Shown one piece after another: positions 48,901-58,071 of a stretch of DNA of 64,000 bases; positions within the stretch are counted from its first letter, which is position 1; the number at the start of each line of letters is the position of its first letter. Source of the DNA: Sneathiella sp. P13V-1 (GTDB lineage Bacteria; Pseudomonadota; Alphaproteobacteria; Sneathiellales; Sneathiellaceae); contig NZ_WYEU01000003.1 of NCBI RefSeq assembly GCF_015143595.1, positions 1 through 64,000 on the forward strand. Reading direction: 5' to 3'. The notes below the pieces were generated by a model. That model saw only the letters and a list, made by a program, of their open reading frames with translations. It was not told the DNA's origin and made no database searches. Both the position numbers and the translations under genes were made by a program.

Positions 48901-49293
48901 ATGGACAGTGATATCTCAGCCGTATTTGGAAAAATGCCGGAATTTGCAGCAAATAATCTGCTTAAAATCCGAGATTTGATCTTGCAAATCTCCGATGAGC
49001 AACCCTCAGTTGGAAAAATCACTGAATGCCTGAAATGGGGAGAGCCAAGTTATGTTACTCACTCCCCGAGAACCGGAACAACCGTCCGCCTTGCCTGGAA
49101 AGAAAAAGACCAGAAATATGGGATTTATGTTCCATGCCAAACCACACTCATTGAAGACTTTAAGGTCGCTCACGAAACTGACCTAACCTTTGACAAAAAT
49201 AGAGGTATTCTTTTCAAAAAAGGCGAGAGTATTCCAATGGATCTAATTTCTTCTTTTCTATTTCACGCACTCACCTATCACGTTAAGAAGTAG
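48901..49293 (+). CDS. DUF1801 domain protein
   Basis: A 130-residue protein of the DUF1801 (YdhG-like) family, with KITECLKWGEPSYVTH (about 40-55) and GIYVPCQTTLIEDFK (about 82-96). This fold resembles steroid-ligand and START-like proteins, and the function is unknown. AAGGTG precedes the ATG. It is transcribed toward the R-body region and ends 5 bp before the convergent sigma-factor gene; nothing ties it to R-bodies. Confidence 0.8.
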   Translation: MDSDISAVFGKMPEFAANNLLKIRDLILQISDEQPSVGKITECLKWGEPSYVTHSPRTGTTVRLAWKEKDQKYGIYVPCQTTLIEDFKVAHETDLTFDKNRGILFKKGESIPMDLISSFLFHALTYHVKK

Positions 49294-49298
49294 TCCTA

Positions 49299-49919
49299 CT
49301 ATCTGAGCGACCCCAATTGGCGCCGCAATATGGAGCGCGCTTGCTGGACACGCTTTCTTGCATTGTCATTACTGATATTGAGCCTTTCTGCGATTACTTT
49401 GTAATCGTCCCCCTCTATTAATCTCATAACCAAGGGGGCTTGTAGGTTAGCAGGTAGCTTATCAATTGCGAGCAATATGGCTTTGCCAAGCTCGGTATTC
49501 ATCAACTCCCCTTCCGGGGAAAGCTCCACATTCTCCAAGGGGCTGTTATCAATCTCAACAACCTCCTTCACTTTCTCCTTTAGCCGAAATCTACGCTTGT
49601 TGGATCGGTGCAAATCAATACAGATATTGTGAAGAAGCCTCGCAAACCAGGCACGCTCATTCTTTATGTTTTCAGCATGTTCTGCGTATTTCTCATGGGC
49701 TCGCAATGTTGCCAGACTTAAGGCATCCTCGGCATCCATATGACTTACATTCATCCACATCAGGCTTAACCGCCTCAAATAATCCCGATGCTCATTCCAA
49801 GCTGCCCAGAAAGCACGGCTTTGTTCTTTTTCAGATACAATCGCACGAATAGGAGCATTTTCATTTTCCGAAATAAACACATCTTGAGTTACAGATGTCT
49901 CCCGCTTAACGTTCCGCAA
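49299..49919 (-). CDS. ECF-type sigma-70 family RNA polymerase sigma factor
   Basis: A sigma-70 family protein of about 206 residues. A sigma region 2-like segment (DYLRRLSLMWMNVSHMDAEDALSLATLRAHEKY, key residues around DAEDA) and a region 4 helix-turn-helix at the C-terminus (LPANLQAPLVMRLIEGDDYKVIAERLNISNDNARKRVQQAR, with ISNDNARKRVQ the recognition helix) are present. The frame is open to an ATG at 49943 without a ribosome-binding site, but a TTG at 49919 has GGAGGG six bases before it and is preferred. It is divergent from the first reb gene with 232 bp between, and is the natural candidate to drive the R-body genes; sigma factors occur beside reb clusters elsewhere. Confidence 0.85.
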   Translation of the reverse strand: MRNVKRETSVTQDVFISENENAPIRAIVSEKEQSRAFWAAWNEHRDYLRRLSLMWMNVSHMDAEDALSLATLRAHEKYAEHAENIKNERAWFARLLHNICIDLHRSNKRRFRLKEKVKEVVEIDNSPLENVELSPEGELMNTELGKAILLAIDKLPANLQAPLVMRLIEGDDYKVIAERLNISNDNARKRVQQARSILRRQLGSLR

Positions 49920-50150
49920 TGTGCACCCTCCCGCAAACACCATATTGGCGTAATTAAAAATTCTATGTGTTATTTAGGTTGCATATTTCCCCTTTAAAGT
50001 GTTTTTTTATATTTTTCTTCTCTTAGTAGGATATATAAATCTCACTAGGAAGATTTCTAAATCTCATTTCCGTTACTTGGGCTCACTATCATAGTCGGAT
50101 CGCCAGAACGTCCTTTATCTGTATTTTTTACAGGAATGAAGGACATCAAA

Positions 50151-50531
50151 ATGCCTGATAAAAGCACAACTAAGTACACGGACCCGATTACGGAATCTGT
50201 TGTAAATGTAAATCAAATTGTTCTAGGAAGCGCTGCGGCGACGGCTATGGCCGCCATGTATGTCACTCTGGCCCAAGCTGCTGGCGTGGGTGCACAAAAC
50301 TCTGTCACCTCGCAAAACCACCTCAATATACTGGGGAACGCCGCGATCGGTGCAGGCACAGGTAATCTGTTGTGGGAAGGCCTCAACAGGCAAGTTGAAA
50401 ATCTCACGATGAATGACCGGTTAAAATACTGGGAACAGATGATGGCAATCAGCAAGGGGCAGCCTACGGAACAAACACCTGCTGCCGACACCACATCCCA
50501 GAATACATCTACTGACACACCGTCGGCTTAA
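50151..50531 (+). CDS. Divergent Reb-type R-body protein (Reb1)
   Basis: A 126-residue protein aligned with the RebB family over about residues 14-66: DPITESVVNVNQIVLGSAAATAM replaces the NSQITDxVTQxN...APAxSM core and MYVTLAQAAGVGAQNSVTSQNHLN matches xYQxLAQxxGxSxQNxVxNQQ. It lacks the NSQ motif and has a longer C-terminus with a Thr/Ala/Pro-rich tail. The ATG at 50151 has GAAGGA seven bases upstream, better than the one at 50136. First gene of the R-body cluster, directly after the sigma-factor promoter region and 14 bp before the next reb gene. Confidence 0.8.
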   Translation: MPDKSTTKYTDPITESVVNVNQIVLGSAAATAMAAMYVTLAQAAGVGAQNSVTSQNHLNILGNAAIGAGTGNLLWEGLNRQVENLTMNDRLKYWEQMMAISKGQPTEQTPAADTTSQNTSTDTPSA

Positions 50532-50545
50532 AGATTGGATAGTGT

Positions 50546-51001
50546 ATGAGCGATAAAAAAACACCAGACGCTGCACAAAACATGAAAGCTGCGATGGGAA
50601 ATGTAGAAGAATCCCCTTCCTTTGCAATGGGCCTTTTATACCAGTTTGCTGCCCATTCTTCTGGACTCGCCTTAAACAACGCGACAGTAAATTCCAACGT
50701 TCTCAACAGCGTTAACAGCGCAAATGGAACTGTTCTCACAGCCCTCAAAAACGCTGAAGCAGCTGTCTTAAGCGCCCAGAAAACTACGATAGGCGAGAGT
50801 TACAACGCCCAAACAGCGACTATTACTGAAGCGTTAAACTCTCAGACAACCGCAGCGGTTACTGGTCTCAACTCTGTCACCAATGCCGGAGCGACTGCCC
50901 TCACCGCGCAAACCAGCCAGGAAATCGCCGGTATTACAGCAGATGCAATTGCTGCCACCGCTGTTGCCATGGACAGTATCGTGAAAAAAATGGGGGGTTA
51001 A
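50546..51001 (+). CDS. Long Reb-type protein with Ala/Thr-rich tail (Reb2)
   Basis: A 151-residue protein whose residues 20-50 (EESPSFAMGLLYQFAAHSSG, then LALNNATVNSN) align with EAPAEAVGILYQQMAHSIGLALQNVIAQQQ of the last Reb paralogue. The rest is a helical, Ala/Thr/Asn/Gln-rich tract (about 55-145) with repeated NAQT, SQTT, AQTSQE and ADAIAAT units, likely an amphipathic fibre-forming segment. No NSQITD motif is found. It follows Reb1 by 14 bp and is probably co-translated. It could be the ribbon-stacking or length-determining subunit; that is inference. Confidence 0.75.
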   Translation: MSDKKTPDAAQNMKAAMGNVEESPSFAMGLLYQFAAHSSGLALNNATVNSNVLNSVNSANGTVLTALKNAEAAVLSAQKTTIGESYNAQTATITEALNSQTTAAVTGLNSVTNAGATALTAQTSQEIAGITADAIAATAVAMDSIVKKMGG

Positions 51002-51007
51002 CCCAGT

Positions 51008-51745
51008 TCAAGTAACGATGATGGGCGCGCCTTTGGTGATGATCAACGTGTGCTCATATTGAGCAGACGGGGACCCATCCCAAGTCAGCAAAGTCCACCC
51101 ATCATCGCTTTCTTTGTAGCGCCCAACCCCTTTGGTCAGAAATGGCTCAATGGTTATCACCAGTCCTTCTACCAAAGGAGAGCGCAGGTTGGGCATAAAA
51201 CGATTATGAACATCTGGCGGCTCATGAATATTGCTGCCAACACCATGACCTACCAGCCCGTCAATAATCCGATAGCCCCGTTTGGTCGCTAGGCCCTCTA
51301 CTGCCCGGCCAATCATGTTAAGAGCATTCCCAGCACGGGCTGCATTAATGCCTGCATCCAGTGCCTTCTTCGTCGCGTCACATAGATCTGTTAAGTGACT
51401 CGCAACACGCCCTACAGGCATGGATCGGCCGGAATCAGCCCAATACCCGCCTTTTTCAGCTGACACATCAATATTGACCAACTGTCCTTCTTCAAGAACG
51501 CGATCCCCGGGAATACCATGGGCGGCTTCATTGTGGACACTGATGCAGGTGTATCCCGGAAAGTCATAAGCAAGTTTCGGTGCGGACGTAGCCCCAAGAT
51601 CAGAAAACATACGGCCGGCAATTTCGTCTAAATCGCGAGTTGTAATACCAGGACGAACAGCTTGTTCCATCTCGTCAAGGACCTGACGAATAATCCCACC
51701 GATTTCTTTCAAGCCTTCAATATCTTCGTCTGTTTTCGCAATCAT
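51008..51745 (-). CDS. map: Type I methionine aminopeptidase
   Basis: A 245-residue methionine aminopeptidase. The five metal ligands are visible: Asp and Asp in LVNIDVSAEKGGYWADSGRSM (about 90-108), His in GLVGHGVGSNIHEPP (about 162-176), Glu in ITIEPF and Glu in QYEHTLII. AHGIPG near residue 76 holds the catalytic-pocket His. It removes the initiator Met when residue 2 is small. It sits inside the reb cluster on the opposite strand, 6 bp after Reb2. Every Reb protein here has a small second residue (Pro, Ser, Ala, Thr), so all are expected substrates. It may be a second copy beside the housekeeping map gene. Confidence 0.93.
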   Translation of the reverse strand: MIAKTDEDIEGLKEIGGIIRQVLDEMEQAVRPGITTRDLDEIAGRMFSDLGATSAPKLAYDFPGYTCISVHNEAAHGIPGDRVLEEGQLVNIDVSAEKGGYWADSGRSMPVGRVASHLTDLCDATKKALDAGINAARAGNALNMIGRAVEGLATKRGYRIIDGLVGHGVGSNIHEPPDVHNRFMPNLRSPLVEGLVITIEPFLTKGVGRYKESDDGWTLLTWDGSPSAQYEHTLIITKGAPIIVT

Positions 51746-51812
51746 CTCTTCTCACCCTGCACCGATTGAAGCCAACTGTATGTTTTTTATATGTTTTTTG
51801 TCAAATTTGTTC

Positions 51813-51835
51813 TGCGAAAAATGAGATGTTTCGCA
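51813..51835. promoter_or_regulatory. Inverted repeat TGCGAAA/TTTCGCA upstream of the second reb block
   Basis: TGCGAAA (51813-51819) and TTTCGCA (51829-51835) are perfect arms with a 9-bp spacer, in the 206-bp space between map and the RebB-like genes. It is a candidate operator. Confidence 0.5.
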
Positions 51836-51842
51836 AGACATA

Positions 51843-51857
51843 GATGGGATTCCCATC
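51843..51857. promoter_or_regulatory. 15-bp palindrome GATGGGA-T-TCCCATC
   Basis: Perfect 7-bp arms flanking one base, 95 bp upstream of the third reb gene and 98 bp upstream of the map start. Being between divergent transcripts, it may be an operator for either or both. Confidence 0.55.
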
Positions 51858-51951
51858 ATTTTTTTTCACACAGTCTCAAAGGCTTCCGTCTTTCCGCTGT
51901 CGAATTGAACACATGATGATGTTCACTTTCATGAAAAGACGGAGGACCCCT

Positions 51952-52302
51952 ATGGCAAAAGATACGCCGGTGAACAGTCAAATTACAGATGCGGTTACGC
52001 AATCCAATATGGCTGTGCTGGGCAATGCACCAGCCCAATCCATGGCAACGGCTTATCAGTTGCTGGCTCAATCAGTTGGTGTTTCCATGCAAAATGCTGT
52101 GGCCAATCAGCAGAACATGAACACGATCGATAGCGCCATTCTTTCCCAAGGGATCAGCCTTCTTTTTAATCTGGATGCGGCAGCTGATGCCAGTTCTGTG
52201 AAGGATATGCTCGTGGATGAGAGCAACAACGAAGTTCTTTCGACACTACAGGCGATTGTCAGTGAATTGAAATCGTCACAAGCAGAAGACAAGGATGATT
52301 AA
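51952..52302 (+). CDS. RebB-like R-body protein (Reb3)
   Basis: A 116-residue RebB-family protein. It carries the core VNSQITDAVTQSNMAVLG (about 6-23), APAQSMATAYQLLAQ (about 25-39) and VSMQNAVANQQNMNTID (about 43-59), the region thought to build the R-body ribbon, and an acidic C-terminus. The ATG at 51952 has GGAGGA upstream; the frame is open to 51844 but those codons have no homology. It is the first of five RebB-like genes in a row; R-bodies are polymers of such proteins. Confidence 0.9.
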   Translation: MAKDTPVNSQITDAVTQSNMAVLGNAPAQSMATAYQLLAQSVGVSMQNAVANQQNMNTIDSAILSQGISLLFNLDAAADASSVKDMLVDESNNEVLSTLQAIVSELKSSQAEDKDD

Positions 52303-52344
52303 CCATCCTTCCCTAGCCCATAACGCTTATTAAGGAGTTACATT

Positions 52345-52665
52345 ATGCCAGGCGATACCCCGGTAAATTCACAGATTACAGATTCAATCACACAAGCCAA
52401 CGTCAGTAACCTGGCCGAGGCCCCTGCCGTTTCCATGGCCAATACCTATCAGGTATTTGGTCAGGTTGTCGGTGCCAGCATGCAAAATGCTGTTTCTAAC
52501 CAGCAAAGTGCTGCCACCATTGATCTGGCAGTAGCTACACAAGGTACAAGTGTACTTTATAACCTGTCTGCATCAACAGCAGCGAAAGCCACATCGGAAG
52601 TTCTTTCTGGCAATCCGGTTGCTGAGTCCTTAAGCGCGCTGCAGGCAGCGGCAAACGGTTTTTAA
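52345..52665 (+). CDS. RebB-like R-body protein (Reb4)
   Basis: A 106-residue RebB-family protein: VNSQITDSITQANVSNLAEAPA (about 6-27), YQVFGQVVGASMQNAVSNQQ (about 35-54), then VLYNLSASTAAKATSEVLSG and an Ala-rich end. AAGGAG lies before the ATG, and the gene is 42 bp after Reb3. The predominance of small and polar residues with few charged ones fits assembly into an SDS-insoluble ribbon. Compact length is that of canonical Caedibacter RebB (about 105). Confidence 0.92.
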   Translation: MPGDTPVNSQITDSITQANVSNLAEAPAVSMANTYQVFGQVVGASMQNAVSNQQSAATIDLAVATQGTSVLYNLSASTAAKATSEVLSGNPVAESLSALQAAANGF

Positions 52666-52712
52666 TCTAACAGCCTAACAGCACATTCTTCATTACATAA
52701 AGGAGGGCCATT

Positions 52713-53069
52713 ATGGCTGAAAATACTTGGATGAACAGTCAGATCACTGACAGTGTGACACAATCAAACGTAAAAGTACTGGGTGATGCACCCGCAGAAT
52801 CCATGGGTATGCTCTATCAGATGCTGGCACAAAGCACAGGTATGAGTATGCAGAATATGGTTGCTAACCAGCAGCATAAAAACTCAATCGACAGCGCGGT
52901 AGTCACAGGTGCTGTAACTGTACTTTACACATTGGATACTGCAACAACAGGAAAAGCGACACAGGAAATCCTGAGCGGTAATCCGATCGCAGAATCCATG
53001 GCCTCCCTAAAAGGTGTTATGGCAGCGTTCAACCGTGAAAATCCAAACACACCGCGCTTCGGCGGCTAA
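52713..53069 (+). CDS. RebB-like R-body protein (Reb5)
   Basis: A 118-residue RebB-family protein: MNSQITDSVTQSNVKVLG (about 6-23), APAESMGMLYQMLAQSTGMSMQNMVANQQ (about 25-53; key repeats), and VLYTLDTATTGKATQEILSGNPIAESM, sharing AKATxEIL and GNPxAES with Reb4. A strong AAAGGAGGG site precedes the ATG. The last ten residues are Asn/Pro/Arg-rich. Probably a main structural subunit together with Reb4. Confidence 0.92.
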   Translation: MAENTWMNSQITDSVTQSNVKVLGDAPAESMGMLYQMLAQSTGMSMQNMVANQQHKNSIDSAVVTGAVTVLYTLDTATTGKATQEILSGNPIAESMASLKGVMAAFNRENPNTPRFGG

Positions 53070-53075
53070 ACCAAA

Positions 53076-53106
53076 TATCCCCTGATTTGCCCGTCAGATC
53101 AGGGAT
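53076..53106. repeat. Stem-loop between Reb5 and Reb6 genes, first
   Basis: TATCCCCTGAT (53076-53086) pairs with ATCAGGGATA (53097-53106) with one bulged C. It is 6 bp after the Reb5 stop and has no T tract. Confidence 0.6.
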
Positions 53107-53109
53107 ACG

Positions 53110-53161
53110 CCTGAACCTCACACTTCCCCTGGGTAGCCCGTCTTTACCTGTGAGGTTCAGG
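53110..53161. repeat. Stem-loop between Reb5 and Reb6 genes, second
   Basis: CCTGAACCTCACA (53110-53122) and TGTGAGGTTCAGG (53149-53161) are perfect 13-bp arms with a 26-base loop. With the preceding stem it lies in the 120-bp gap within the reb series, suggesting transcript attenuation or mRNA protection between Reb5 and Reb6. Confidence 0.75.
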
Positions 53162-53189
53162 TATTCAACCATTTCAAACGGAGTTAGAA

Positions 53190-53558
53190 ATGACCAAAGA
53201 CGACAGCAATAGTTATAAACAGGTGAAATCTGTTAACAGCCAAATCACGGATGCGGTTACGCAGTCAAATATGGTACTCACCGGTCTTGCACCTGCCCAC
53301 TCCATGGGAACTTTGTATCAGACCATGGCGCACACGGTCGGTACCTCCTGGCAAAATGCTGTTTCTAACCAACAGAATGTCAACACCGTCAATCTGGCGG
53401 CTCTTGCCCAGAATTTGCAGCTCATTTTACAACCACAGCAGAGGCGCCGCGAAATCCAGCTACCACCAATAATTGTACAGCCGACAGTTGTCAAAACCGC
53501 AAGTCAGAACAGGGAAAGTGATGACGACACTTCGTCACGTCGTTCAAAAAGCAAATAA
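53190..53558 (+). CDS. RebB-like protein with divergent basic C-terminus (Reb6)
   Basis: A 122-residue protein. The N-terminal two thirds are a normal RebB core: VNSQITDAVTQSNMVLTG (about 11-28), APAHSMGTLYQTMAHTVG and TSWQNAVSNQQNVNTVNL. After about residue 75 the sequence becomes QRRREIQLPPIIVQPTVVK and ends in DDDTSSRRSKSK, unlike all neighbours, so the usual AKATxEILxG part is missing. A CGGAGTT site precedes the ATG. This could be a capping, anchoring or nucleating subunit. Confidence 0.87.
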   Translation: MTKDDSNSYKQVKSVNSQITDAVTQSNMVLTGLAPAHSMGTLYQTMAHTVGTSWQNAVSNQQNVNTVNLAALAQNLQLILQPQQRRREIQLPPIIVQPTVVKTASQNRESDDDTSSRRSKSK

Positions 53559-53602
53559 CCAACTCGTTCCCACATCCATCTAAATGAGTCAGGAGCAACG
53601 GC

Positions 53603-53947
53603 ATGTCCGAAGAATCCTATGTAAACAGCCAAATCACAGATGCCATAGCGCAGACCAGCATGAAGGTTATAGGCGAAGCCCCTGCGGAAGCTGTTGGCAT
53701 CCTATACCAGCAAATGGCCCACAGCATAGGTCTGGCTCTGCAAAATGTGATTGCTCAACAGCAACACAGTTACACCATACATAACGCAGTTACTCTCGCG
53801 GCATCAAGACAGTTACTCACCACGGACCCAGCCGCAGCGGCTAAAGCCTCACAAGAGCTTATTGCGGGAAGTTCAATCACAGATAATTTAGTAGCATTGC
53901 AATCTGTTGTCTCCGAAATGGGAAAGAAGCCTGATAATCAATCTTAA
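53603..53947 (+). CDS. RebB-like R-body protein (Reb7)
   Basis: A 114-residue RebB-family protein: VNSQITDAIAQTSMKVIGEAPAEAVGILYQ (about 6-35), AHSIGLALQNVIAQQQHSY (about 38-56), and TDPAAAAKASQELIAGSSITDNLVALQSVV matching the AKATxEILxG...AESLxAL tail. It is slightly more divergent than Reb3-Reb5 (NVIAQQQ in place of NAVSNQQ). AGGAGCAACGGC precedes the ATG. Last reb gene of the cluster; a small helix-turn-helix gene follows 28 bp later. Confidence 0.9.
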   Translation: MSEESYVNSQITDAIAQTSMKVIGEAPAEAVGILYQQMAHSIGLALQNVIAQQQHSYTIHNAVTLAASRQLLTTDPAAAAKASQELIAGSSITDNLVALQSVVSEMGKKPDNQS

Positions 53948-53975
53948 TGAACCGAGTAGTTGAGCACAAAGTGAT

Positions 53976-54245
53976 ATGGAAAAACGACACCACTCCAACG
54001 AAGAAATTGAAGAGATCCTTCAAGAACTGGAAAATGGGCTCACCATTGACGAAATTACCTTTGAATACGGGATTTCGCGTGCAACTCTTTACAGGTGGCG
54101 AAAGCGCGCCCGCAATTCCTTCGACCGGGATATCAACCGCCTTCGGCAAGCGGATGAAGAAAATGCGAGACTGAGAAACCTTCTGGCGGATGCAGTGTTG
54201 GAAATTCACGCTTTGAAGGAAAAACTGGAACAAATTGAAAAATAG
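53976..54245 (+). CDS. Small IS3-OrfA-like helix-turn-helix protein
   Basis: An 89-residue protein with a transposase OrfA-type helix-turn-helix (HSNEEIEEILQELENGLTIDEITFEYGISRATLYRWRKRA, key residues ISRATLYRW at about 32-40) followed by a leucine-rich coiled coil (ENARLRNLLADAVLEIHALKEKLEQI, about 61-86). There is no OrfB catalytic partner, and no terminal inverted repeats or duplicated target were noticed, so it is not an intact insertion sequence. Its place directly after the last reb gene makes it a candidate regulator of the cluster, perhaps a domesticated transposase part. Function unproven. Confidence 0.75.
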   Translation: MEKRHHSNEEIEEILQELENGLTIDEITFEYGISRATLYRWRKRARNSFDRDINRLRQADEENARLRNLLADAVLEIHALKEKLEQIEK

Positions 54246-54290
54246 AGTCTGCACGATTGCGGGATCAATAAGAACCGCTATAACTACGGT

Positions 54291-56096
54291 ATGAGTGACA
54301 CACCAAGACAAGTTCTTCAATCCATCTTTGGATACCCCGATTTCCGTGGCCATCAGGAAGATATTATAAACCACAGCCTAAGTGGTAGAGATGCCCTTGT
54401 CTTAATGCCAACTGGGGGTGGTAAATCCCTGTGCTATCAGATCCCTGCTTTGTGTATGGAGGGGACAACTGTTGTTATCTCCCCCCTTATTGCCTTGATG
54501 CAAAATCAGGTAGACGCTCTTCAAGCATTGGAGATCCCATCAGCAGCCCTAAATTCCAACTGCCCACCAGAAGAACAGGCCCAAATTTTCTCAGCGCTGA
54601 AAGAAGGACGCATCAAACTTCTATATATCGCCCCTGAACGTTTATCAGCCCCGGGTTTTATCGACTTTTTGACCACCCTGAATATAAGCCTGTTCGCGAT
54701 TGATGAGGCCCATTGCGTATCACATTGGGGGCATGATTTCAGACCTGAATATCTTAAACTGGAACAGTTGAAAGAGAGATTTCCACGTGTTCCCCGCCTG
54801 GCGCTAACCGCCACAGCCGATGAGCGCACAGAAAAAGACATCATCCAGAGACTAGGGCTTCAATATGGTGCTGTGTTCAGGTCCAGTTTTGACCGCCCCA
54901 ACATAGCTTACTATGTAAGCAGCAAATCCAATCCGATGACCCAATTGGTAGGTTTCATCAAAAGCAAACATAGCGGTGAAGCGGGAATTGTTTATTGCAT
55001 GTCCCGAAAGCGGGTCGAGACGATTACCGCAAAACTCTGTGAGTTGGGTTTTGACGCCCTCCCCTATCACGCCGGGCTAACCTCTACAGAACGATCCAGA
55101 AACCAATCCCATTTCCTCAAAGAAGAAGGGGTGATTATGGTCGCCACTATTGCGTTCGGGATGGGCATTGATAAACCCAATGTGCGCTTTGTCGCCCATC
55201 TGGACCTTCCTAAAAATATGGAAGCCTATTATCAGGAAACAGGACGTGCAGGACGTGACGGCCTCCCGGCAAATGTCTGGATGATTTATGGGCAGCAGGA
55301 TATTGTCCGCACAAGGATGTTGCTGAGCGAAAACCCCTCTTATGAGCAACGCATTCAAGATCTTCAGAAATTTGACGCCTTGCTCGGCTACTGCGAAGAA
55401 CTCACATGCCGCCGACAGATATTGCTGTCTTATTTTAATGAACATTCTGAACCTTGCGGCAACTGCGATAACTGCCTAACCCCTCCCGATATTCAGGACG
55501 TCACAACGGATGTACAGCTCGCTCTATCAGGGATCTATAGAACCGGACAACGTTTTGGCGCCGGTCACATCATCAATGTTCTTATCGGAAACGAAAGCGA
55601 TAAGGTCGTAGAATGTGGTCACGACCAATTGCCACTTTTTTCGAAAGGAAAACACCGCAGCCGTTCTGAATGGCAGCTCATCATTCGAAGCCTGCTTGCC
55701 AGAAACCTGATCCATCAGGATTTAGAAGGATATGGCGCGCTTTCGCTTAAAGAAGAATGCCGCCCTTACTTAAAAGGGGAGGTCAAATTCTCTATACGGA
55801 TTGAAGATAAAAAGAGCGGGAAAGCACGCGTTTCACCTAAAATTCTTGAGAATGGAGATGATCAGAAGCTCTTTGATGAATTGAAGCGCGTCCGACTAGA
55901 ACTGGCACGCGAGGCGGATGTTCCGCCCTACATTATCTTCTTTGATCGCACATTATTAGAAATGGTCCACAAGAAGCCTGATACAGTGTCAGCTCTTTCC
56001 AACATTTCAGGGATCGGCGCTACCAAACAAGAAAAATATGGCCCCCAGTTTTTAGAGGCCATTGGAAATTTCATCGCAAAACAAACAGTGGACTAA
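54291..56096 (+). CDS. recQ: ATP-dependent DNA helicase RecQ
   Basis: A 601-residue RecQ helicase. Helicase motifs include [15 protein letters not shown] (motif I, about 35-49), [19 protein letters not shown] (motif II), [11 protein letters not shown] (motif III), and [15 protein letters not shown] (motif VI). The zinc-binding RQC part has [23 protein letters not shown] (about 372-394) and a C-terminal HRDC domain ends the protein. It unwinds DNA in recombination and repair. Transcribed from the same strand as the reb genes but 45 bp past the HTH gene and apparently independent. Confidence 0.95.
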
Positions 56097-57067
56097 CCGC
56101 TAAAAGCATCAATTGCACGAAGGACGGCAGGTCCAATCAACACGATAAATAGCGCTGGCAGGATAAAAACAATCATTGGCACTGTCATAATTGCAGGCAA
56201 TCGCGCTGCTTTTTCTTCTGCTCTCATCAGACGCTCATCCCGCATTTCTGCAGATAAGACGCGAAGGGCAACAGCCAATGGCGTACCATATTTCTCTGTT
56301 TGAAGAAGCGTATTTACAAGGGTGTTCATCGCTTGAAAATCAACACGAGCTGACAAGTTCATCAAGGCTTCTTTACGATCTGCCAGAAAGCCCAACTCAA
56401 TGGAAGTGAGACCAAACTCATCTGCAAGTTCAGGCGATGAATTTGAAATTTCACGGCAAACACGGTCCAATCCACTATCCAGATTGAGGCCAGCTTCGGT
56501 ACAAATCACCAAAAGATCCAGTGCATCGGGCAGTGATTTCTGCATCTCTTTATATCGTTTGGAAATCTGATTTTTCACCAGAACTCCCGGAAGGGCATAG
56601 CCAACCACTGCCATACCAATAGCCCCGGCGATGCCACCTGCAAGAGGCCATTCAAACGGGTTTTGAACGATGAAATAGATAACACCGAACGTTCCCAGAA
56701 ACAGCGGAAGTGAAATACGGGCAAAAAGGTAGGTCACCAAAGCATCTTTTGACCGCCACCCGGCCTGCGCCAAATGAGCGGAAATCTGCCGGGCTCCTTC
56801 ACCCTTCATCAATCGCAGTTTCTTGACGATGCGGTGCATCAGTGTTTCATTGGCGATCAGAGCGCTTCGCTGCCGCTTCTCATTAACGATATCGTCTTTG
56901 AGTTTTGTACGGCGCTTTTCAAGGCTCTTAATGCGATCTGGTAAATTGTCTTTCACCAGCAATGCATTCCAAATCATCAAGAAGGACACCATGGCCGCGA
57001 CACCAGCCACCATCGCCATAATATCTTCCGATTTCATCCAGTCGGGGAGAAGTGTTGTAATATCCAT
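56093..57067 (-). CDS. tadC: Flp pilus inner-membrane platform protein TadC
   Basis: A 324-residue type II secretion F-family protein. Hydrophobic helices lie at about 18-40 and after residue 120, with the cytoplasmic GspF domain between ([31 protein letters not shown], about 186-216). Ends in a helix pair [21 protein letters not shown]. TadC pairs with TadB to form the platform below the secretin. It is the last gene of the operon and overlaps recQ by 4 bases, convergent. AAGGAGAAGAGG precedes the ATG. Confidence 0.93.
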
Positions 57068-57078
57068 ACCTCTTCTCC

Positions 57079-58071
57079 TTAAATCTCGAACCGGACCATC
57101 TTGAACATGACGGCTACCCCCGTCCCGATCATGAAGAGGCCTGCGCCAATCATATAGATACCGCGCGGATCATCGATGAGCATGGAGATATATTCATCAT
57201 TAGCCAGCCAGAGAAGGAAGAACATGATGAACGGCAGGGATCCGATAATCCAGGCACTCGCGCGCGCCTCAGATGACATCGCCTTAATCTTCAACTTGAT
57301 CTGACGGCGTTTACGCAACGTATTTGCAAGTCCCGCCAGTGTCTCAGCCAAATTACCACCTGTTTCTCGCTGAATGGAAATGGCGATAATCAGGAATTTA
57401 AAATCAGGCGGATCAATCCGCTTTGCAACATCCCAAAGCCCTTCTTCCACACCTTTACCAATGCGAATGGCATCAGCGACACCGCGAAACTCTGTTGCAA
57501 TCGGCTCAGGCGCATCTTTTCCGATGGTGACAATGGCTTCACTGATCGGCAGACCCGCCCTGAGGCCGCGAACCAAAAGCTCAATGGCTTCCGGAAAATG
57601 CTTCATAAATTTATTAACGCGCCACTTGCCCATAAACCCAACTGTCCAATGGGGCAGCCACAACCCGGCAACGAGCCCCACAGAGATGGTCAACATCCAA
57701 CCAAAGCCAAATGTGAAACGCATGACAACCCAGGCAAATGCGACAACTACCAGACACATTAGGGAATATTCACCAATGGTGATTTTCCGACCTGTCTTTT
57801 CAAGACGACTTCTCAGTTCAGCTGGCTTTGGAACCAGTTTGCGGACCAATGTATCTACTATTTTAATGCCGCTGGCATCATCCTGCCGACGGGCAGTATT
57901 TCGCTGAGTGGGTTTCGGGCCAACAGGACCGTGGCCACTACCAACTTCAGCAAGGCGTCTTTTGGTACTGGCAGTATTACTATCGCCGCCCACTAGCGCA
58001 AATCCGAGGATAAGTGTCACAAGAAGGGTTGCCCCTCCTACAACGAGTGCCAGAAGTAATTGATCGTCCAT
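57079..58071 (-). CDS. tadB: Flp pilus inner-membrane platform protein TadB
   Basis: A 330-residue membrane protein. An N-terminal helix (ALVVGGATLLVTLILGFALVGG) is followed by a disordered Arg/Gly-rich stretch, two helices at about 105-150 and the GspF domain with FPEAIELLVRGLRAGLPISEAI (about 165-186) and ISIQRETGGNLAETLAGLANTLRKRRQIK, the usual TadB block. The ATG overlaps the stop of the ATPase gene by one base, so they are translationally coupled. Confidence 0.93.
   Translation of the reverse strand: MDDQLLLALVVGGATLLVTLILGFALVGGDSNTASTKRRLAEVGSGHGPVGPKPTQRNTARRQDDASGIKIVDTLVRKLVPKPAELRSRLEKTGRKITIGEYSLMCLVVVAFAWVVMRFTFGFGWMLTISVGLVAGLWLPHWTVGFMGKWRVNKFMKHFPEAIELLVRGLRAGLPISEAIVTIGKDAPEPIATEFRGVADAIRIGKGVEEGLWDVAKRIDPPDFKFLIIAISIQRETGGNLAETLAGLANTLRKRRQIKLKIKAMSSEARASAWIIGSLPFIMFFLLWLANDEYISMLIDDPRGIYMIGAGLFMIGTGVAVMFKMVRFEI

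What the first reader, a model, noticed from the sequence alone, without database searches (positions are those of the whole stretch)
49299..54245. Complete R-body (refractile body) gene locus with seven Reb-type proteins and its own sigma factor
Five genes encode RebB-family proteins sharing the core VNSQITDxVTQxN...APAxSM...YQ...QNxVxNQQ, and two more (Reb1, Reb2) are divergent members. R-bodies are SDS-resistant protein ribbons, coiled in the cell, that extend explosively under a trigger such as low pH. They are known from the killer symbiont Caedibacter and from few other bacteria; reb homologues are reported to be widespread in Proteobacteria but mostly uncharacterised. Here all paralogues, a divergent sigma-70 family gene and a small DNA-binding protein are packed in 5 kb. 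The Reb set should be structurally differentiated: three short canonical forms, one with a basic tail, one with an Ala/Thr tract.
Basis: partly seen in the sequence, partly recalled or inferred. Interest (0 to 1): 0.9.

Follow-up and report, generated by a model that had tools for sequence, protein, structure and literature searches.

The report
R-body gene cluster with own sigma
A bacterium of the genus Sneathiella carries seven genes for R-bodies (coiled protein ribbons that can spring open), next to a switch protein that, by DNA comparison, probably turns the main ones on through a start signal also found at R-body genes of other bacteria.

Summary
All seven proteins pass Pfam's RebB cut-off. 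The genome is Sneathiella by its nearest relatives; 21 of 23 same-genus relatives carry reb genes. R-body clusters, also with a sigma factor beside them, are known (PMC3583457, PMC8322103).

New here, in silico: a promoter TCAC(A/G)-N16-CGTC before reb3, in 23 of 23 loci of the genus. Elsewhere TCAC(A/G)-N15/16-CGT(C/T) precedes reb genes in 17 of 17 clusters whose genome has a related sigma nearby and in 2 of 28 where none was found. CGTT was admitted after seeing Pseudomonas; CGTC alone gives 9 of 17 against 2 of 28. Best reading: this sigma drives reb operons, as genetics shows for FecI2 in P. aeruginosa.

The small DNA-binding protein is a lone IS3 OrfA-like protein with a predicted long zipper-like helix; no Crp/Fnr gene is in the cluster. 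Its role is inferred. A conserved RNA hairpin separates reb5 and reb6. R-body formation, expression and toxicity are untested.

The parts
49299..49943 (-). ECF-type sigma factor (214 aa), divergent from reb1
   Evidence: Sigma70_r4_2 37.5 bits, Sigma70_r2 23.8 bits (just under its cut-off of 24); TIGR02937 sigma70-ECF 61 bits over cut-off 42.9; found in 23 of 60 genomes, all of them reb carriers
49989..50001 (.). palindrome CACTTTTAAAGTG-like in the sigma-reb1 gap (2 mismatches here), candidate operator
   Evidence: alignment; 0-2 mismatches in 18 of 19 loci of the genus with the gap, 3 in L053r
50136..50531 (+). reb1, divergent RebB-family protein (start may be 50151)
   Evidence: PF11747 50.2 bits
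50546..51001 (+). reb2, divergent RebB-family protein with Ala/Thr-rich tail; strongly conserved in the genus
   Evidence: PF11747 27.5 bits; 70-90% identity in the genus; median pN/pS 0.17
51008..51745 (-). second type I methionine aminopeptidase gene, inside the cluster in only part of the genus; membership of the system uncertain
   Evidence: TIGR00500 242.6 bits; another copy at G000:C2:649215-649946, 314.6 bits; present in 12 of the 21 loci of the genus that cover the reb2-reb3 interval
51822..51835 (.). operator-like palindrome TGAGATGTTTCGCA, 5-N4-5 geometry
   Evidence: TGMGA-N4-TCKCA with 0 mismatches in 21 of 23 loci of the genus, 128-137 bp upstream of reb3
51866..51892 (+). predicted ECF promoter of reb3 and the genes after it: TCACA-N16-CGTCTT
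   Evidence: TCAC(A/G)-N16-CGTC in 23 of 23 loci of the genus and in G024; extended motif once in the own genome
51952..52302 (+). reb3, canonical RebB-family protein (ORF opens at 51844)
   Evidence: PF11747 83.5 bits; homologues start here
52345..52665 (+). reb4, canonical RebB-family protein
   Evidence: PF11747 71.5 bits
52713..53069 (+). reb5, canonical RebB-family protein
   Evidence: PF11747 89.9 bits
53109..53162 (+). 14-bp-stem RNA hairpin in the reb5-reb6 gap, with a smaller hairpin before it (53080-53104)
   Evidence: stretch 53066-53189: -43.1 kcal/mol, z -4.76 against 200 shuffles; 6 of 14 pairs with changes on both sides in at least one of 9 sequences; another hairpin at the same place in the other subclade
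53118..53142 (+). second TCACA-N16-CGTC site before reb6, inside the hairpin
   Evidence: TCAC(A/G)-N15/16-CGTC in 8 of 11 loci grouped with the aminopeptidase carriers, 0 of 11 of the other loci of the genus
53190..53558 (+). reb6, RebB-family protein with basic tail
   Evidence: PF11747 72.7 bits
53603..53947 (+). reb7, RebB-family protein
   Evidence: PF11747 69.5 bits
53976..54245 (+). lone IS3 OrfA-like protein: helix-turn-helix plus long zipper-like helix, no orfB
   Evidence: HTH_Tnp_1 49.3 bits; AlphaFold2 pLDDT 90.8, helices 8-19, 24-31, 35-88; beside the reb genes in 19 of 21 reb-carrying same-genus genomes, the own genome and G024

Best explanation
This is an R-body locus. Reb3, Reb4 and Reb5 are most likely the bulk ribbon subunits, with Reb6, Reb7, Reb1 and Reb2 as minor or assembly-shaping members (inferred from conservation and gene order). 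Their transcription is switched on by the linked ECF sigma factor at a promoter TCACA-N16-CGTC 86 bp before reb3, and in part of the genus at a second such site before reb6. A regulator bound at the palindrome TGMGA-N4-TCKCA just upstream, either an unlinked Crp/Fnr protein or the lone OrfA-like protein at the end of the cluster, works with it. The hairpin after reb5 lets reb3-reb5 mRNA accumulate above reb6-reb7. Shown here: the genes, their conservation, the motif and its association with the sigma, and the conserved paired element. Inferred: that this sigma binds the motif, what the regulators and the hairpin do, and that ribbons form.
For: Seven PF11747 matches over cut-off. Order sigma, reb1-reb7, HTH, recQ kept across the genus. 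Sigma in 23 of 60 genomes, all reb carriers. reb3 promoter in 23 of 23 loci of the genus, 85-95 bp before reb3. Outside the genus, with CGT(C/T): 17 of 17 sigma-carrying clusters (40 of 81 reb domains have a site within 200 bp) against 2 of 28 without a sigma in the stretch (2 of 93 domains); in the first set 37 domains at spacer 15, 3 at 16, none at 10-14 and 17-19, one each at 20 and 21; 0 of 600 letter-permuted motifs reach 40, the best, a near variant, reaching 23. Within Pseudomonas 8 of 8 sigma-linked and 0 of 10 other clusters. Reb-linked sigmas separate from nine other ECF sigmas with support 99/97. In P. aeruginosa, deletion of fecI2 or rcgA abolishes rebP1 promoter activity (PMC8322103, passages). 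Hairpin.
Against: No expression, binding or microscopy data for any Sneathiella; the held library has no paper with both words. CGTT was allowed only after the Pseudomonas alignments; strict CGTC gives 9 of 17 against 2 of 28, p 9.6e-4. Five of the nine non-Pseudomonas positives had been looked at before the test; four are fresh. Clusters are not independent: 8 Pseudomonas, 3 Ruegeria, 3 of one genus. 'No sigma' means none of this type (E under 1e-18) in stretches of 3.6 to 19 kb; in G052, counted as positive, the sigma lies about 17 kb from reb; L193 and L194 have a weaker sigma match, taken as another ECF. L143 and L146 have the motif without a sigma on their short contigs. In the genus the reb1-reb2 unit and the sigma gene lack the motif in 18 of 19 loci. 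Two extended-motif sites of unknown use lie elsewhere in two relatives. An unlinked ECF41-type sigma could read a similar site.
Confidence: 0.8

Rival explanations
1. The promoter is read by another ECF sigma of the cell, such as an ECF41-type factor, and the linked sigma controls something else.
For: ECF41 promoters are TGTCACA-n16-CGTC (PMC3426412, passages), very close to the motif here. Motif identity does not prove which sigma binds. Whether the own genome has an ECF41 sigma was not searched.
Against: The motif follows the presence of the linked sigma (17 of 17 against 2 of 28; within Pseudomonas 8 of 8 against 0 of 10). The linked sigma lacks the roughly 100-residue ECF41 extension: region 4 ends at residue 204-207 of 214. 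FecI2 is needed for the rebP1 promoter in P. aeruginosa (PMC8322103).
Confidence: 0.1
2. The cluster is real but no longer makes R-bodies; the Reb proteins form another structure or are kept for another use.
For: No paper in the held library has both Sneathiella and R-bodies; reb2 matches only part of the RebB profile, positions 12-52 of 68.
Against: Purifying selection on reb5 and reb2 (median pN/pS 0.14 and 0.17, synonymous sites near saturation); the canonical core is intact in reb3-reb7; 21 of 23 same-genus genomes keep reb genes.
Confidence: 0.1
3. The OrfA-like gene is a chance remnant of an insertion sequence and takes no part.
For: Its family is the IS3 transposase OrfA; an IS3 copy with orfB exists in a relative. 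G022 has the cluster without it.
Against: Same place in 19 of 21 reb-carrying same-genus genomes (one of the other two is cut by its contig end), the own genome and G024; purifying selection (median pN/pS 0.37; closest pairs dN/dS 0.08-0.16); no orfB beside it in the window.
Confidence: 0.2
4. The reb5-reb6 hairpin and the TCACA...CGTC inside it form a DNA operator and promoter rather than an RNA element.
For: A palindrome gives paired changes in DNA too; the promoter-like site sits in it in 8 of 11 loci of one group.
Against: G-U pairs are kept at several positions; the other group has a different hairpin and no promoter-like site, at the same place.
Confidence: 0.3

Closest known systems
Pseudomonas aeruginosa PA14 reb cluster (rebP1P2, rebD, rapA, rcgA, fecI2)
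   Same: RebB-family genes beside an ECF sigma; sigma needed for reb expression (PMC8322103, passages read). Eight other Pseudomonas clusters have TTCACA-N15-CGTT before the rebD-like and rebP1-like genes.
   Different: No Crp-family rcgA in the Sneathiella cluster; instead a lone OrfA-like protein; seven Reb genes instead of three; spacer 16 instead of 15. The PA14 DNA itself was not available here.
Group 2 synteny of Raymann et al. 2013 (HP2.1, HP2.2, HP2.3 sigma, HP2.4 cyclic-nucleotide-binding regulator); compared here with the Ruegeria pomeroyi megaplasmid
   Same: Linked sigma; in Ruegeria TCACG-N15-CGTC 62 bp before both reb units.
   Different: No HP2.4-like regulator and no 205-220 aa hypothetical protein inside the window's cluster.
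Azorhizobium caulinodans reb operon (PraR, RebR)
   Same: RebR is a Crp-Fnr protein with a 5-N4-5 palindrome in the reb promoter (PMC5527310, passages), the same geometry as TGMGA-N4-TCKCA here.
   Different: Different palindrome letters; the word sigma does not occur in that paper's main text.
Caedibacter taeniospiralis pKAP298 reb locus
   Same: RebB-family proteins (42.6% identity to reb5 over the aligned part).
   Different: No sigma of this type and no such promoter motif in the 8.9 kb examined; RebC was not searched for here.
ECF41 sigma factors
   Same: Promoter TGTCACA-n16-CGTC shares the TCACA and CGTC cores (PMC3426412, passages).
   Different: The window sigma has no C-terminal extension; the TG before TCACA is not conserved.

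Membership tests
RebB family (Pfam PF11747) | profile score over the curated cut-off | tested here: met
   7 of 7 proteins, 27.5 to 89.9 bits against 24
R-body locus | three or more clustered reb genes | tested here: met
   seven within 50136-53947
R-body locus | coiled SDS-resistant ribbons that extend on a trigger | not testable with these tools
   needs microscopy and expression
R-body locus | helical Reb subunit fold | tested here: inconclusive
   all-helical monomer model of reb5 but pLDDT 61.7, pTM 0.23; no related solved structure by sequence
Raymann Group 2 synteny | linked sigma factor HP2.3 | tested here: met
   linked sigma lies with the Ruegeria, Pseudomonas and other reb-linked sigmas, apart from nine other ECFs, 99/97; the paper's own HP2.3 sequences were not held
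Raymann Group 2 synteny | linked Crp-type regulator HP2.4 | tested here: not met
   none among the cluster's genes; 0 of 40 genomes match the Ruegeria Crp at E 1e-15, a strict limit
Raymann Group 2 synteny | HP2.1 and HP2.2 proteins of 205-220 aa | tested here: not met
   no such ORF from 49299 to 54245 other than the sigma itself; the rest of the genome was not searched for them
ECF41 sigma factor | C-terminal extension of about 100 aa | tested here: not met
   region 4 ends at 204-207 of 214 residues
ECF41 sigma factor | target promoter TGTCACA-n16-CGTC | tested here: inconclusive
   TCACA and CGTC with N16, without the fixed TG
IS3 family transposase | OrfA with HTH_Tnp_1 domain | tested here: met
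   49.3 bits against cut-off 24.1
IS3 family transposase | adjacent orfB with the catalytic domain | tested here: not met
   next gene is recQ; a LysR-like gene in L027; an IS3 copy in G012 has orfB
Type I methionine aminopeptidase | TIGR00500 over cut-off | tested here: met
   242.6 bits against 171.35

The most novel reading that the evidence does not exclude
Reb-linked ECF sigma factors and a TCAC(A/G)-N15/16-CGT(C/T) promoter form one dedicated R-body regulation module shared by Alpha-, Beta- and Gammaproteobacteria, and in Sneathiella its Crp/Fnr co-regulator was replaced by a recruited insertion-sequence protein (OrfA) that binds palindromes at the reb3 and sigma promoters.
Probability: 0.3. 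Interest if true: 0.65.

Novelty: new variant of a known kind. Interest (0 to 1): 0.5.

Why it matters
What switches R-bodies on is largely unknown, and in P. aeruginosa only 0.26% of cells in liquid culture showed rebP1 expression (PMC8322103, passage). A short promoter signature tied to a linked sigma factor would let reb regulons be read from sequence in uncultured bacteria, would separate sigma-driven clusters from the others, and gives direct tests (one gene deletion, one promoter mutation). It also points to a genus with named type strains in which R-body production can be looked for.

Tried and rejected
Considered and rejected or left open. (1) Chance ORFs: rejected by Pfam scores and genus-wide conservation. 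(2) Aminopeptidase as a core part of the system: absent in 9 of 21 loci and in G024. Every Reb start listed has a small second residue, which would make the proteins substrates of any methionine aminopeptidase; kept only as a lead. (3) Crp/Fnr partner in Sneathiella: search with the Ruegeria protein gave nothing at 1e-15 in 40 genomes; a distant one is not excluded. (4) P. aeruginosa DNA as a direct check: one Pseudomonas-like genus had 0 of 25 genomes with reb, so another genus of that family, 28 of 398 with reb, was used. (5) Rfam: no match in 49000-54500 at gathering threshold. (6) Fold search with the OrfA-like model: no match with E under 0.001, only general helix-turn-helix matches. (7) Link between loss of the OrfA-like gene and decay of the two palindromes: the one cluster seen to lack it (G022, L053) has the worst copies in the genus, but its reb genes are also diverged, and G024 has the gene without the palindromes; a weak hint. 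(8) The FecI2 motif of PMC4362757 is a logo in a figure that is not held, so I could not compare letters; the Pseudomonas part of the motif may already be in print. Searches for print.

Papers: PMC3583457 abstract, passages and parts 1 and 2 of 3 of Results; PMC13430693 abstract, Results, part 1 of 2 of Discussion; PMC8322103, PMC4362757, PMC5527310, PMC3377617, PMC3426412 passages only. All others in the search listings were seen as listings only.
Full report
What is there. The window lies in a 3.7 Mb genome whose closest relatives for reb5 are Sneathiella records (95, 93, 96, 93 and 91% for the first five listed, two of them not named to genus). Seven ORFs between 50136 and 53947 match Pfam RebB above its cut-off, and the whole-genome search finds exactly these seven. 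An ECF-type sigma gene runs divergently (49299-49943), a type I methionine aminopeptidase gene (51008-51745, minus strand) sits between reb2 and reb3, and an 89-residue helix-turn-helix protein follows reb7.

Conservation. Of 23 same-genus genomes searched, 21 have RebB matches; the two without are 65-66% complete. I compared 23 loci of the genus, own included (one, L031, is titled only Sneathiellales). The order sigma, reb1 to reb7, HTH, recQ is kept where the contig reaches, with these differences: the aminopeptidase is present in 12 and absent in 9 of the 21 loci that cover its place; G022 (L053) lacks the HTH gene; L027 and L032 have extra DNA before recQ; reb1 was not matched in L038. A genus of the same family (G024) has sigma, eight RebB matches and the HTH gene without the aminopeptidase. 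The genome holds a second, higher-scoring type I aminopeptidase elsewhere.

Sigma and reb go together. Among 60 genomes (own included) the sigma was found in 23 at E up to 1e-10; all 23 have reb genes. Two of the 25 reb-carrying genomes lack it: G008, whose reb contig starts just before reb3, and G059. Four same-genus genomes also have a second, distant ECF match (29-30% identity). In a tree of 45 ECF sigmas, nine other ECFs, chosen among weaker matches of the same profile, split off with support 99/97 and the reb-linked ones lie on the other side; several branches are long and the inner order is unsure.

Promoter. Alignment of the DNA before reb3 showed TCACA, 16 bases, CGTCTT in otherwise diverged sequence. 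TCAC(A/G)-N16-CGTC is present in 23 of 23 loci of the genus, 85-95 bp before reb3 (in L040 at 93 bp, with a second match further up), and in G024. The extended form TCACANNNTCTCAN8CGTCTT, up to one mismatch, occurs once in the own genome, at 51866; 11 of 24 genomes searched had it, 2 of these with one further site elsewhere; G005 and G014 did not reach it. A second TCAC(A/G)-N15/16-CGTC lies before reb6 (53118 here) in 8 of 11 loci grouped with the aminopeptidase carriers and in 0 of 11 of the rest, two of which (L036, L037) were grouped by sequence because their contigs do not cover the aminopeptidase place. The sigma-reb1 gap has no such site in 18 of 19 loci.

Test outside the genus. I collected 27 reb stretches. 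TCAC(A/G)-N15/16-CGTC within 200 bp before a reb domain: 9 of 9 stretches with the sigma, 2 of 18 without, p 1.2e-5. It precedes 23 reb domains in the first set, 20 at N15 and 3 at N16, with one each at N20 and N21 and none at the other spacers from 10 to 22. Five of the nine (three Ruegeria, G024, G052) and two of the 18 had been seen when the idea arose; of the fresh ones 4 of 4 (three genomes of one genus and a Burkholderia plasmid) and 2 of 16 have it. G052 was counted as sigma-positive although its sigma lies about 17 kb away. The two exceptions, L143 and L146, are contigs of 6.4 and 12.7 kb in which a sigma could be missing. I then added 18 of the 28 Pseudomonas-type genomes with reb matches. 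There the strict motif lies before the Crp-family gene in the 5 loci where such a gene was recognised (in L185 the gene's start is unclear), not before reb; the alignments show TTCACA-N15-CGTT before both the rebD-like and the rebP1-like gene in 8 of 8 sigma-linked loci. Allowing CGT(C/T), a choice made after seeing this, gives 17 of 17 against 2 of 28 (40 of 81 reb domains against 2 of 93), p 1.6e-10; 0 of 600 permuted motifs are as frequent, the closest being near variants of the motif itself. The strict form gives 9 of 17 against 2 of 28, p 9.6e-4. The clusters are related to each other, so the p-values overstate. Ten Pseudomonas clusters without the sigma have none within 200 bp; L196 has one 358 bp before reb, and L193 and L194 carry a weaker sigma match that I took as another ECF. 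For most 'without' clusters only the fetched stretch was examined. In P. aeruginosa PA14 both FecI2 and RcgA are required for rebP1 promoter activity (PMC8322103, passages); I did not have PA14 DNA. In P. fluorescens Pf-5 two reb genes rise under iron limitation (log2 0.91 to 1.31; PMC3377617, passages); whether that holds for Sneathiella is unknown.

Second regulator. Just upstream of the reb3 promoter lies TGMGA-N4-TCKCA, without mismatch in 21 of 23 loci, 128-137 bp before reb3. Its 5-N4-5 geometry equals that of the RebR (Crp-Fnr) site in Azorhizobium, GT(A/G)(A/C)C-N4-G(T/G)(T/C)AC (PMC5527310, passages). The Sneathiella cluster has no Crp gene. It has the HTH protein instead: HTH_Tnp_1 family, predicted with high confidence as three helices, the last 54 residues long (pLDDT 90.8), with invariant residues in the recognition helix and the zipper part, purifying selection, and no orfB beside it, whereas an IS3 copy in G012 has orfB and the own-genome copy has a shortened one. 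No HTH match was found in the non-family reb stretches searched. I infer a recruited OrfA acting as regulator. The evidence that it binds these palindromes is weak.

RNA element. The reb5-reb6 gap folds into hairpins, -43.1 kcal/mol, z -4.76. In nine loci of one group 6 of 14 pairs have at least one sequence with both sides changed and the pair kept; in eleven loci of the other group 6 of the 13 pairs of the main stem and 2 of the 5 of a smaller stem do; several G-U pairs occur, and some pairs are broken in some sequences. The two groups have unrelated stem sequences at the same place. No T-run follows in the window. I infer a transcript stabiliser or leaky terminator that raises reb3-reb5 above reb6-reb7.

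Known and new. Reb clusters are reported from 671 unique taxa (PMC13430693), and sigma linkage in 2013 (PMC3583457). In the listings of my searches of the held library and the passages read I found no statement of a shared promoter for reb-linked sigmas, of the OrfA-like protein or of the hairpin, and no paper with both Sneathiella and R-bodies. A FecI2 logo exists in PMC4362757 but its letters are not in the text seen, so part of the motif may be in print. Verdict: a typical R-body gene set with a regulatory arrangement that differs from those described and is directly testable.

Noticed in passing
51008-51745 (-): A second type I methionine aminopeptidase gene inside the reb cluster, kept in part of the genus; the Reb starts listed all have a small second residue, so they would be its substrates.
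   Followed up: partly
53070-53189: Two hairpins in the reb5-reb6 gap; the other Sneathiella subclade has an unrelated hairpin at the same place.
   Followed up: yes
49944-50135: AT-rich sigma-reb1 gap with a conserved CACTTTTAAAGTG palindrome of unknown role; in one subclade a TAATACG-GTGTATG stretch follows it.
   Followed up: partly
52713-53069 (+) and 50136-50531 (+): reb5 and reb1 match a phage protein family of unknown function, phrog_32040 (8.4e-24 and 1.6e-9), so a RebB relative occurs in phage genomes.
   Followed up: no
L207 (G000:C1:578500-581600): An IS3-type copy in the own genome with orfA and a shortened orfB, beside a gene pair resembling a nucleotidyltransferase toxin-antitoxin system (by eye, not searched).
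   Followed up: no
56093-58071 (-): Two membrane proteins that look like TadC and TadB of a pilus system (recalled resemblance, not searched) next to recQ.
   Followed up: no
L183-L190, before rebP1-like genes: A conserved inverted repeat (ACACGGAA, then CCGTGT) between the predicted promoter and the start codon of the rebP1-like gene in Pseudomonas-type clusters.
   Followed up: no
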